From positions 1-64,000 of the forward strand of contig JAHHIE010000011.1 in the NCBI GenBank assembly GCA_019358945.1: a DNA stretch of 64,000 nucleotides, read 5' to 3'. How positions within the stretch are numbered: the first letter of the stretch is position 1; every line of letters begins with the position of its first letter. Both the position numbers and the translations under genes were made by a program. Shown here piece after piece: positions 12,414 through 59,352 of this stretch. Source of the stretch: Stenomitos rutilans HA7619-LM2 (lineage in GTDB: Bacteria; Cyanobacteriota; Cyanobacteriia; Leptolyngbyales; Leptolyngbyaceae). The notes under the pieces were generated by a model. The model had not been told where the DNA came from and did no database searches. It saw only the letters and a list, made by a program, of their open reading frames with translations.

Positions 12414-12526
12414 TAGGACTTACGCAAAAGCGGTCATCTTTCGCCCCCTAGTCCCCAACTTTTGGGGGAACCGTCTCAATCAAAGCCCCCAAGATTGGGG
12501 GTTTGGGGGCAAATGCGTAAGTCCTA
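12414..12526. mobile_element. MITE-like element, family B, copy 1, with TA flanks
   Basis: The terminal inverted repeats are GGACTTACGCA and TGCGTAAGTCC (element 12416-12524), flanked on both sides by TA, the duplication expected of IS630/Tc1-type transposition. The interior has C-rich and G-rich stems (CCCCCTAGTCC and TTGGGGGTTTGGGGG) and no coding capacity. Related copies lie at 46858 and 57267. Confidence 0.85.
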
Positions 12527-45979: not shown

Positions 45980-46030
45980 AACAATGCTGTTGCTTCAACC
46001 TCCGAGGTTTTAGTCAAACTGCGTAAGTCC
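45934..46030. mobile_element. MITE-like element, family C core with family B-type ends
   Basis: The ends GGCTTACGCA and TGCGTAAGTCC match the terminal repeats of family B, but the interior has the family C palindromes (AAACCTCGGAGCTTT and AACCTCCGAGGTT). It overlaps the 3' end of the TPR gene. The mixture suggests that different cores use one set of transposase-recognised ends. Confidence 0.75.
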
Positions 46031-46857: not shown

Positions 46858-46969
46858 TAGGACTTACGCATTTGCCCCCTAGCCCCCAATGCTGAGGGCT
46901 TTAATTGGCTCGGTTCCCCCAGCATTGGGGGCTAGGGGGCGAAAGATGATCGCTTTTGCGTAAGTCCTA
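46858..46969. mobile_element. MITE-like element, family B, copy 2, with TA flanks
   Basis: Terminal repeats GGACTTACGCA and TGCGTAAGTCC enclose a 108-base element (46860-46967) with TA on both sides. The core has CCCCCTAGCCCCCAATGCTG pairing with CAGCATTGGGGGCTAGGGGG. It lies in the 325-base gap before dps, where nothing else was recognised. Confidence 0.87.
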
Positions 46970-55592: not shown

Positions 55593-56939
55593 CTAACTCT
55601 TCTGCTGGCTCAAGCGTTGATAGACCGTTGCTAGAGCACTCGCATCGCCGACATTGCCAGGAAATAGCACAACAGGCAGATCGGGAAACTGGGGATGATT
55701 GGATGGGGTACGCACCATTGAAACGCCTGCTAGCACTTGACCCAACAACCGAGCGGTTCTGAGCGCCAAGCCATTGCTGAGGGTATCGTTGGAGGTGATG
55801 CCACCTTTGCTAATGAGAAAGCCGATGTCATCGGGCAAGTGGCGAATGATGTCCATGAGCAGGGCCGAGACGGCTTCACCAAAGTTCAGTCGGGTCTGCG
55901 TATCGTCGAAGGTAAGTTCTTGACGGCTCGTATACACAACAGGGGTTTTGCCTCCAGTGTGAGCAGCGTTGACCGCTTGAACGGCTTCGGCAAGGAGGGA
56001 CGATCGCTCATTCTCCCCTTTCTCTAGCAACCGTGCCACCGCTAGCTCAACGCCAACGATCCCCGGTTGCGCCAGCAGGTGTTCTAGCTGCTCGGTGGTT
56101 TTCTTCACGTGAGATCCCACAATGACACCACCGGGCTTCCCGTTACGGACATAGTTTGCCATCGCTTCAGGCGCGATCGGCTGGGGTGGCAACGCTGCTA
56201 GCGCGGTCAGCAAACTTGCCGCACTGCGAAAGAGAAACCGTTTGCCTTGGGACGCGGCTGCCAAAACATCTACTGCGAAACGATCGAGATCACCTTGCGT
56301 CACCGCATCCACTACACCACACTGATTGTCATGCAGTTGCAGAAGGCGATCGAGGACACCCGCCTGAATGTCTTGCACCAGAAAGCGTTCTACCCGATCG
56401 GCCAGAATCTTACCGTCTGTTTTCTCTTCAACATAGGCAGGTAAGTAACTATGGTGATAGCCAAACACCGAATCGCGTGCAAACTCGGTTTCGTGTACGG
56501 GCGTATCCACACCGTTAACCTTTAGGTAATGGATGCTATCTCGCGTTGTGCGTCCCCCTTCAAAAAAGGCAGGCGTGAGAAAGTGAGCATCAAAAGGGCC
56601 AAGCTCCTCTGCAATGACATCGGTTTCGATCGGGTAATGTCCGCGCAGGGTAGAATCCGATCGACTCACCACCAAAAAATCGTGAATCTGTTCGAGGGCG
56701 ATCGCCTCTTTCAGGTGATGGCACACCTCCCGCGTGACCGCTGCTGCTTTATCTGGGGTTAAGGCCCGTGTATTCGTCAGCACGAAAAAGATCGGCGCGT
56801 CGTCTGTCAGCCCCAGCCGCAACGTTTCCACATCCCACTGCATCAACAACAGACAACTGTGTACCGTCTGCGACCCCGTTGGATCGTCGTCCAGAACAAT
56901 AATTTTGGGTTTTGTAGTCATGGGTAGCAGATGTTGCAT
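55593..56939 (-). CDS. Four-carbon acid sugar kinase family protein (DUF1537/OtnK-like)
   Basis: The N-terminal domain has IIVLDDDPTGSQTVHSCLLL and DFLVVSRSDSTLRGHYPIET, and the C-terminal nucleotide-binding domain has FLISKGGITSNDTLSNGLAL and VVLFPGNVGDASALATVY, matching kinases of threonate, erythronate and related acids. I set the start at MQHLLPMTTKPK (448 residues); MTTKPK at 56921 is equally possible, and the longer track start is unlikely. With the LtnD/GarR-like dehydrogenase it could form a sugar-acid degradation route. The aldolase step is not seen here. Confidence 0.85.
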   Translation of the reverse strand: MQHLLPMTTKPKIIVLDDDPTGSQTVHSCLLLMQWDVETLRLGLTDDAPIFFVLTNTRALTPDKAAAVTREVCHHLKEAIALEQIHDFLVVSRSDSTLRGHYPIETDVIAEELGPFDAHFLTPAFFEGGRTTRDSIHYLKVNGVDTPVHETEFARDSVFGYHHSYLPAYVEEKTDGKILADRVERFLVQDIQAGVLDRLLQLHDNQCGVVDAVTQGDLDRFAVDVLAAASQGKRFLFRSAASLLTALAALPPQPIAPEAMANYVRNGKPGGVIVGSHVKKTTEQLEHLLAQPGIVGVELAVARLLEKGENERSSLLAEAVQAVNAAHTGGKTPVVYTSRQELTFDDTQTRLNFGEAVSALLMDIIRHLPDDIGFLISKGGITSNDTLSNGLALRTARLLGQVLAGVSMVRTPSNHPQFPDLPVVLFPGNVGDASALATVYQRLSQQKS

Positions 56940-57111
56940 TAGCTCATTATCACGCGAGATGAGGATAGAGGGATAGGGTATGGGATCAGGGCTAGGAGAT
57001 TTTGCACAGTTTGAACTGTTGCATAGAAAGATCATTAAGTAAGGGTGATAATCAAAAAAATTGGTGCATCAAGCGTTACCGCATTGGGGTGAGAATTTAC
57101 CATACAAAGAT

Positions 57112-57500
57112 ATGAAGTTTACTTGAGACGAAAACAGAGCAAACAGCAATCTGTCCAAGCACGGTATTCAGTTTGAGGAAGCGAAGACAATTTTTGATCA
57201 TCCGCTTTACGTTGACTTCTACGACCCCGACCACTCTGAGAAAGAAGAGCGTTATCTTAGAATGGATAGGACTTACGCAGTCGCCCCCTAAATCCCCCAA
57301 TTCTGGGGGACTTTGAGTGCTTGCTCCCCCAAATTTGGGGGTTGGGGGGCTAGTTTTAGAGAATTTGCGTAAGTCCTGTTGGAGAGTCTAATCGAGGACG
57401 GTTGTTGCTTGTTTCGTATACGGGGAGAGGAAAATCCATTCGTCTCATTAGTGCTAGAGAAGTCACCCGATCTGAGCGAGAAGCCTATGCAGAAGGATAA
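57112..57500 (+). pseudogene. brnT: brnT toxin gene, inactivated by a nonsense codon and a MITE
   Basis: ATG AAG TTT ACT TGA opens a reading frame that matches BrnT toxins (ribonucleases of the RelE fold). The TGA is at codon 5, where the family start MKFTWDENK has Trp (TGG). Past it the frame reads ENRANSNLSKHGIQFEEAKT and continues to EERYLRM, is broken by a family B element at 57267-57378, then resumes with GESNRGRLLLVSYTGRGKSI and EVTRSEREAYAEG to TAA. Removing the 108-base element and one dinucleotide leaves 279 bases, exactly 93 codons. So the toxin is dead twice over, while the antitoxin remains. Confidence 0.88.
57267..57378. mobile_element. MITE-like element, family B, copy 3, inside brnT
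   Basis: Element 57269-57376 with ends GGACTTACGCA and TGCGTAAGTCC, TA on the left and TG on the right (a probable decayed TA). The core holds AAATCCCCCAATTCTGGGGG and CTCCCCCAAATTTGGGGGTT. It interrupts brnT after codon 52. Confidence 0.9.
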
Positions 57501-57753
57501 TCCAGAACTGGAAGACGAACTTCGTCCAGAATACGACCTGAAAGGCTTAAGCGTCAGAAAGTTAGGCACTGGACGAAAAAGCTTTGGTAGGATGGTCATT
57601 CGCTTGGAGCCTGATGTGGCAGAAATGCTTCCAAGCGCCGCTGCCGTCAATGAAGCATTACGATTTTTGATTAGAGTGACACAAGAGCGCCAATCTTCTG
57701 CTTCTAAACCGCTCCCCAACAAGCCTGTGAAGGTGGACCAGAGACTATCTTGA
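57487..57753 (+). CDS. brnA: BrnA-type antitoxin of the broken brnT
   Basis: The gene starts at the ATG inside the end of brnT (14-base overlap), the usual arrangement of brnTA. The product has 88 residues: MQKDNPELEDELRPEYDLKG, then a ribbon-helix-helix-like part, GRMVIRLEPDVAEMLPSAAA followed by VNEALRFLIRVTQE. The ORF-track start at 57379 is a TTG whose first 36 codons read brnT in a wrong frame. With its toxin destroyed, the protein may only act as a DNA-binding regulator, or it may neutralise a BrnT elsewhere. Confidence 0.8.
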   Translation: MQKDNPELEDELRPEYDLKGLSVRKLGTGRKSFGRMVIRLEPDVAEMLPSAAAVNEALRFLIRVTQERQSSASKPLPNKPVKVDQRLS

Positions 57754-57813
57754 TGGGTGGATAGTCATTTCTATAACAGCCATTTCAGGTAAGTGTTTGC
57801 GTTAGGAAAGCAG

Positions 57814-59352
57814 ATGACGATCGTTGGAGTCTGGGTGCTAGGGGATCAACTGTGGGCAGAGCAAGCCGCGCTGCAAAGCTGTGTAGAGCAGCGATCGCGC
57901 ACGCCTGTGCTTTTCATTGAGTCACTAAAGCATGTGCAAGAACGCCCCTATCATCTGCAAAAGCTGGTGCTGGTGTGGTCAGCAATGCGGCATTTCGCTG
58001 AAGAACTTAGACAGGCAGGCTGGTCAGTCACCTACGAGCAAGCTGAGGATTTTCTCACGCCACTGAAGGCTTGGATCAAAACGCATCACATCACGGAACT
58101 GCGGGTAATGGTGCCGAACGATCGCCCCTTTGCCCACTTCATCGCCTCTCTTCAACTTCCGTGTACAGTCACCCTTGTTCCCAACAACCACTTCATTTGG
58201 AGTGAAGCTGATTTTAGAGAGTGGGCAGGCAAGCGCAAACGCTTACTGATGGAGGACTTTTATCGTGAAGGCCGTCGCCGCTGCAACATTCTCATGGTAG
58301 GTGAGCAGCCCGTCGGTGGTCGCTGGAACTTTGATCAAGAAAACCGCAAACCACCCAAAGGCAAACTAACCCTACCCGAAGCCCTCTGGTTTTCACCTGA
58401 TGCCATCACGCAGGAGGTGATCACCTGGGTCAAGCAGAGCGATCACTTCAAAACCAGCCAGCAGTATTGGCAAATTGAACCGTTTCAATGGGCCGTGACG
58501 CGTGAACAAGCGCTGCAAGTGCTGCATTTTTTCATCACGATGCGCCTGTCTGACTTTGGCCCTTACCAGGATGCTATGTTAGCGGGCGAAATCACGATGT
58601 GGCATGCCATGCTGTCGCCCTACCTCAATCTGGGCCTGCTACAGCCGATCGAAGTCATCGAAGCCGCCGAGCAAGCCTATCTTGACAATCGAGAGACCTG
58701 GCACCTCAGCAGCGTTGAAGGCTTCATTCGGCAAGTGCTGGGCTGGCGGGAGTACATGCACGGCATCTACAGCTTCATGAGTGACGACTATCCAGAGCGT
58801 AACTGGTTTCATCACACTCAACCACTACCTGACTTTTACTGGACGGGTGACACATCCATGAACTGCCTGCATCAGATCCTCACGCAGGTCAAGGAAATGG
58901 GATACGCGCATCACATTCAACGACTGATGGTGTTAAACAACTTCGCGCTAATTGCAGGTATCTCACCCCAAGCGATCGAAGACTGGTTTCACGCTGCGTT
59001 TATTGATGCCTACGATTGGGTCATGCAAACAAACGTCATTGGCATGGGGCAATTTGCCGATGGTGGCGTGCTGGCATCCAAGCCCTATGCGGCCTCTGCT
59101 AACTACATCAACAAAATGAGTGATTACTGCGGCAAGTGCGTTTACAACCCTAGAGCGCGCACGGGCGAAAAGGCATGTCCCTTCAATTTCTTTTACTGGG
59201 ATTTTCTCGATCGCCATCGTGCCAAACTCACCACTCAGGGACGCATGAGCTTTATCCTCAGAAACCTCGACAAAATGGCTCCAGAGGAACTAGAAACCAT
59301 TCGGCAAGAGGCGATCGCATGGCATGAAGAGGCCGCGGCAAAAGCAAAATAG
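57814..59352 (+). CDS. Iron-sulfur bacterial photolyase/cryptochrome (FeS-BCP, PhrB-like)
   Basis: The 512-residue protein starts MTIVGVWVLGDQLW after an AGGAAAG site; the track's GTG start seven codons earlier is less likely. It matches the FeS-BCP class, which includes Agrobacterium PhrB, a (6-4) photolyase, and Rhodobacter CryB. The four Cys that bind the 4Fe-4S cluster are present at 351 (MNCLHQIL), 439 and 442 (YCGKCVYN) and 455 (KACPFNFF), one position off the 350/438/441/454 I recall for PhrB. It should bind FAD and repair UV damage or signal light. Confidence 0.92.
   Translation: MTIVGVWVLGDQLWAEQAALQSCVEQRSRTPVLFIESLKHVQERPYHLQKLVLVWSAMRHFAEELRQAGWSVTYEQAEDFLTPLKAWIKTHHITELRVMVPNDRPFAHFIASLQLPCTVTLVPNNHFIWSEADFREWAGKRKRLLMEDFYREGRRRCNILMVGEQPVGGRWNFDQENRKPPKGKLTLPEALWFSPDAITQEVITWVKQSDHFKTSQQYWQIEPFQWAVTREQALQVLHFFITMRLSDFGPYQDAMLAGEITMWHAMLSPYLNLGLLQPIEVIEAAEQAYLDNRETWHLSSVEGFIRQVLGWREYMHGIYSFMSDDYPERNWFHHTQPLPDFYWTGDTSMNCLHQILTQVKEMGYAHHIQRLMVLNNFALIAGISPQAIEDWFHAAFIDAYDWVMQTNVIGMGQFADGGVLASKPYAASANYINKMSDYCGKCVYNPRARTGEKACPFNFFYWDFLDRHRAKLTTQGRMSFILRNLDKMAPEELETIRQEAIAWHEEAAAKAK

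What the first reader, a model, noticed from the sequence alone, without database searches (positions are those of the whole stretch)
57112..57753. brnT toxin killed twice (Trp5-to-stop and MITE insertion) beside an intact antitoxin
Read directly: codon 5 of the toxin is TGA where the family has Trp, and a 108-bp element with TA-type flank sits after codon 52. Deleting the element and one dinucleotide restores a perfect 93-codon BrnT. The antitoxin overlaps the toxin end and has no stop or shift. This is a snapshot of toxin loss with antitoxin retention. The antitoxin may persist as a regulator or as protection against a related BrnT. The order of the two hits is unknown.
Basis: partly seen in the sequence, partly recalled or inferred. 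Interest (0 to 1): 0.8.

Follow-up and report, generated by a model that had tools for sequence, protein, structure and literature searches.

The report
Dead BrnT toxin beside intact antitoxin
In this cyanobacterium one half of a self-poisoning gene pair, the toxin, has been wrecked by a premature stop and a jumping-DNA insertion while its antidote gene stays intact; relatives show that this is a common, one-sided way for such pairs to decay, so the case is clean but ordinary.

Summary
57112-57500 is a broken brnT: Pfam BrnT_toxin matches the two pieces separately and end to end. Codon 5 (57124-57126) is TGA, and a MITE interrupts the frame. The antitoxin (57487-57753) is intact. At the same locus, between a sugar-kinase-like gene and a photolyase-related gene, two species of the genus have intact brnT and no insert. 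A third, Stenomitos frigidus, has lost the 5' part of brnT independently but keeps the antitoxin; three lack the module. In a wider survey 37 of 115 intact antitoxins of this family with a recognisable toxin sit beside a broken BrnT. None of 114 assessable intact BrnTs sits beside a broken or missing antitoxin. This is the expected one-way decay of toxin-antitoxin modules, and orphan antitoxins are already well described. Selection on the retained antitoxin is not shown: both genes still look constrained, so the loss is recent. Real, well supported, of modest interest.

The parts
57112..57266 (+). 5' part of broken brnT (start ATG 57112, TGA at codon 5 = 57124-57126), ending in the left 5-bp target duplication 57262-57266 (ATGGA, one base short of sister DNA)
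57124..57126 (+). premature TGA at a codon that is Trp in the intact sister toxins
57267..57378 (+). 112-bp MITE with inverted ends (AGGACTTACGCA / TGCGTAAGTCCT); very stable hairpin (-61.7 kcal/mol as RNA, z -7.6)
57379..57500 (+). 3' part of broken brnT, from the right target duplication (57379-57383 TTGGA) to its TAA
57487..57753 (+). intact antitoxin ORF, 88 aa, BrnA-like ribbon-helix-helix family not covered by current Pfam/NCBIfam models
55593..57035 (-). flanking sugar-kinase-like gene (SBD_N + NBD_C); syntenic marker
57793..59352 (+). flanking photolyase-related gene (DPRP); syntenic marker

Best explanation
A chromosomal brnT-antitoxin module in a Stenomitos-like cyanobacterium that has lost its toxin and keeps the antitoxin. 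Shown: the toxin frame is closed by a stop at codon 5, by a 112-bp MITE and by a one-base length change at its left junction; the antitoxin ORF is intact; sister species carry the same module intact at the same place; one sister lost its toxin independently by a 5' deletion; three have no module there. Inferred: toxin-first loss is tolerated because the antitoxin is still present, whereas antitoxin-first loss kills or arrests the cell, so decay runs one way. No functional BrnT is made. The antitoxin persists mainly because too little time has passed, possibly helped by a residual role (autorepressor, or immunity to a related incoming BrnT).
For: Pfam hits for both toxin pieces, contiguous in the profile. 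Sister loci intact without insert; independent truncation in Stenomitos frigidus; module absent in three congeners. MITE family with 5-bp duplications and 99%-identical copies, so a recent insertion. One-sided survey: 37 broken toxins beside intact antitoxins against 78 intact pairs; 0 of 114 intact toxins beside a broken or missing antitoxin; Fisher p about 5e-13. dN/dS low in antitoxin (0.12-0.22) and toxin pieces (0.05-0.25), so the decay is young.
Against: Nothing contradicts the death of the toxin. The survey mixes isolates and MAGs; some frameshifts or stops in MAGs may be assembly errors. Whether the antitoxin is transcribed through or around the MITE hairpin is unknown; promoter scans were near chance level.
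Confidence: 0.88

Rival explanations
1. The retained antitoxin is selected as a stand-alone protein: an anti-addiction shield against BrnTs arriving on mobile elements, or a trans-acting regulator of other brnTA operons.
For: Long-solitary relatives keep full-length antitoxins although their toxin has shrunk to a few codons or vanished (L093, L169 and 18 loci with no toxin trace). The genome has related intact brnTA modules on C18 and C93. Antitoxin dN/dS is low even between the two toxin-dead lineages G000 and G001 (0.12).
Against: Antitoxin-first sampling only sees surviving antitoxins, so persistence is partly ascertained. Toxin pieces are equally constrained, so selection after the loss is untestable here. 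The nearest toxins in the genome are only about 47-56% identical to the pieces. Plasmid BrnTs reach 58% at most, and close antitoxin relatives are absent from phages and viral contigs. Antitoxins also break after toxin loss (L106, L207, L220).
Confidence: 0.25
2. The codon-5 TGA is a sequencing error or is read through, and only the MITE is real.
For: Single base; reads not available.
Against: Codon-5 stops (TAG) occur in two other brnT loci, L194 and L207, so a Trp codon one step from a stop is a plausible natural site. The MITE and the junction length change break the frame regardless.
Confidence: 0.06
3. The region is a conserved non-coding or rearranged locus, not a former toxin gene.
For: Three congeners have no toxin in this gap.
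Against: Both pieces match BrnT and two congeners have full ORFs at the same site.
Confidence: 0.01

Closest known systems
BrnT toxin (Pfam PF04365, COG2929; BrnT-BrnA type II toxin-antitoxin system)
   Same: Both pieces match the family; order toxin-antitoxin with overlapping reading frames; intact orthologues in sister species.
   Different: Here the gene is interrupted and cannot give a full protein.
BrnA antitoxin (PF14384) / COG5304-COG3514 RHH antitoxins described with COG2929 (Makarova 2009, PMC2701414)
   Same: Downstream partner of BrnT; EYDF-like motif and C-terminal RHH-like helices; profile-profile match 97.5% to a set of BrnT-partner RHH proteins that includes Pfam BrnA members.
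   Different: No match of its own to Pfam BrnA, NCBIfam or PADLOC models; a divergent branch.
Orphan (solitary) antitoxins in Klebsiella and E. coli populations (PMC7192599, PMC10790755)
   Same: Antitoxins without a functional toxin are abundant; anti-addiction and regulation are proposed roles.
   Different: Here the toxin remains are still readable and the lesions can be listed; different TA family and phylum.
Bacterial MITEs (review PMC10969869)
   Same: Short, non-autonomous, inverted ends, target duplication, many copies.
   Different: Parent insertion sequence not identified here.

Membership tests
BrnT toxin (PF04365) | Sequence match to the family profile | tested here: met
   Pieces E 1.3e-11 and 1.5e-7, profile 2-44 and 46-77; the second piece alone is just below the curated cut-off (32.0 vs 34.5 bits)
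BrnT toxin (PF04365) | Continuous reading frame giving a full-length protein | tested here: not met
   TGA at codon 5, 112-bp insert, one-base junction change: a pseudogene of the family
BrnT toxin (PF04365) | Ribonuclease activity / growth arrest | not testable with these tools
   -
BrnA antitoxin (PF14384) | Direct match to the Pfam model | tested here: not met
   No BrnA hit for the window protein or for close paralogues (proteins 5 and 6)
BrnA-like RHH antitoxin (COG5304-type partner of COG2929) | Gene position directly downstream of and overlapping brnT | tested here: met
   ATG 57487 inside the toxin's 3' end; the antitoxin also lies directly behind brnT in the 78 intact pairs, mostly overlapping it
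BrnA-like RHH antitoxin (COG5304-type partner of COG2929) | Ribbon-helix-helix fold | tested here: inconclusive
   hhalign to BrnT-partner RHH set 97.5%, E 7e-12; AlphaFold2 model low confidence (pLDDT 65) with helices at 42-47 and 51-72
BrnA-like RHH antitoxin (COG5304-type partner of COG2929) | Neutralises BrnT / binds own promoter | not testable with these tools
   -
MITE | Short non-coding element with terminal inverted repeats in many copies | tested here: met
MITE | Target-site duplication | tested here: met
   5 bp, perfect in two other window copies; 4 of 5 here with one base lost on the left
MITE | Related autonomous transposon in the genome | tested here: inconclusive
   The one facing pair of ends inspected (C8, 2.9 kb apart) encloses no transposase; not all end pairs were examined

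The most novel reading that the evidence does not exclude
In this BrnT-antitoxin family toxin death is selected rather than merely tolerated, and the freed antitoxin becomes a stand-alone immunity or regulatory protein, in some lineages keeping a shortened in-frame toxin remnant as a leader that still couples translation to the antitoxin (L161, L163), or an in-frame toxin-fragment/antitoxin fusion (L198).
Probability: 0.12. Interest if true: 0.55.

Novelty: new member of a known kind. Interest (0 to 1): 0.3.

Why it matters
It gives a readable intermediate of toxin-antitoxin decay with intact and independently broken sister alleles at one locus, and a family-wide count showing that decay runs almost only in the direction that spares the antidote. 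That makes the antitoxin's later fate (idle, anti-addiction, regulator) directly testable in non-pathogenic cyanobacteria.

Tried and rejected
TA-type (IS630-like) MITE: rejected, other copies have 5-bp duplications. Antitoxin as a Pfam/NCBIfam/PADLOC family member: no hit; a PDB profile search gave essentially only designed helical proteins. AlphaFold2 of the antitoxin: too weak to run a fold search. Parent transposon: the one facing pair of MITE ends inspected on C8 encloses no transposase. Nearest mobile-element sources: no phage or viral-contig relatives of the antitoxin, one distant plasmid hit. Selection test: dN/dS cannot separate before from after toxin loss. Apparent counter-examples of an intact toxin with a broken antitoxin (L094, L114) turned out to have an ATG just after the stop; L106, L139 and L207 have both genes broken. 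Terminator/promoter scan near chance level.

Full report
Observation. The toxin start is ATG 57112 and codon 5 (57124-57126) is TGA. The two coding pieces on either side of the insert, scanned separately, hit Pfam BrnT_toxin with profile positions 2-44 and 46-77, so one BrnT gene is interrupted. The flanks were not joined; all searches used the pieces apart. The insert is bounded by a 12-nt perfect inverted repeat.

The insert. The same element occurs in 40 or more copies in the 7.28-Mb genome, two of them 99% identical to this one, and its end repeat occurs 104 and 107 times on the two strands against 2 and 0 for a reversed control. Other copies define it as 112 bp (57267-57378 here) with a 5-bp target duplication: CTGAT and TTAAT for the two other window copies, and TAGGG, TTTAG, TTAGT, TTAAA, ACTCG elsewhere. 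At brnT the duplications read ATGGA and TTGGA, and alignment with sister loci shows the left copy one base short: a third lesion. As RNA the element folds to -61.7 kcal/mol (z -7.6), placing a strong hairpin between the original 5' region and the antitoxin. The parent transposon was not found.

The antitoxin. ORF 57487-57753 encodes 88 aa, overlaps the toxin end and is intact. It has no Pfam BrnA, NCBIfam or PADLOC hit, but its profile matches a set of BrnT-partner ribbon-helix-helix proteins (probability 97.5, E 7e-12), some of which are Pfam BrnA members. This fits the COG2929-COG5304/COG3514 pairing described by Makarova et al. 2009 (PMC2701414). Fold prediction was weak.

Sister loci. In the genus (7 genomes, including Stenomitos frigidus ULC18, Tildeniella nuda and Lyngbya sp. 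HA4199-MV5; names) the gap between a sugar-kinase-like gene and a photolyase-related gene holds: an intact brnT and antitoxin in G005 and G002; an antitoxin with a brnT that lost its first third in G001; and nothing in G003, G004 and G006. The lesions of G000 and G001 differ, so the toxin was lost twice independently at one locus. The same genome carries another brnT with an in-frame stop beside an intact antitoxin of a different type (C67), and two intact brnTA modules (C18, C93).

Survey. Antitoxin-first: 80 loci from the species-representative collection, 42 genomes of the family and genus loci, scanned with BrnT and antitoxin profiles, deduplicated and inspected by eye. Result: 78 intact pairs; 37 intact antitoxins with a recognisably broken BrnT (stops, frameshifts, 5' or internal deletions, insertions); 18 intact antitoxins with no toxin trace; a few loci with both broken; none with an intact toxin and a broken antitoxin. 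Toxin-first: 119 full-length BrnT hits in the same 42 genomes; two carry a codon-5 stop just outside the Pfam match and two an internal stop. Of the remaining 115, 38 lie beside this antitoxin family, 76 beside another intact partner ORF and one at a contig end. So 37/115 against 0/114 (Fisher p about 5e-13). Three of the 119 (L240, L245, L287) lack a common start codon near the expected start and were counted as intact. The direction is the one expected from the biology of toxin-antitoxin modules. Sampling bias and MAG errors affect the 37 more than the 0.

Fate of the antitoxin. Pairwise dN/dS is 0.12-0.22 for the antitoxin and 0.05-0.25 for the toxin pieces; lineage-specific changes show no clear excess in either. 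The toxin died recently, so neutral persistence and selection cannot be separated. Orphan antitoxins are common in other bacteria, and anti-addiction or regulatory roles have been proposed for them (PMC7192599, PMC10790755).

Verdict. A real, well-resolved toxin pseudogene beside an intact antitoxin; a new member of a known kind. The most useful product is the orthologous series (intact, truncated, MITE-interrupted, absent) and the one-sided count.

Noticed in passing
G000:C67:24229-24459 (-), L222/L297: A second brnT in the same genome has an in-frame TAA beside an intact antitoxin of a different type.
   Followed up: partly
L261 (G001:C105): Another brnT with an in-frame stop near its 3' end beside an intact BrnA-like partner ORF.
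   Followed up: partly
L194 and L207: Codon-5 stop (TAG) recurs in brnT of two other genera, the same codon as in the window; Trp codons are one step from a stop, but the recurrence is notable.
   Followed up: partly
L198, L204: The N-terminal part of BrnT runs in frame into the antitoxin (internal deletion), giving a toxin-fragment/antitoxin fusion ORF (L204 with an early stop).
   Followed up: no
L161, L163: In-frame internal deletions leave a BrnT of about 37 aa that still overlaps the antitoxin start.
   Followed up: no
L165; L196 and L220: The antitoxin sits behind an MqsA/YgiT-like zinc-finger gene (L165) or a HicB-like gene (L196, L220) instead of brnT; gene names judged by eye, not by a family search.
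   Followed up: no
window 12414-12525 and 46858-46969: Further MITE copies with perfect 5-bp target duplications; a single end also lies at 46020.
   Followed up: yes
L315 (G003, kinase-photolyase gap): A different palindromic repeat occupies the same intergenic gap in a congener that lacks brnTA.
   Followed up: no
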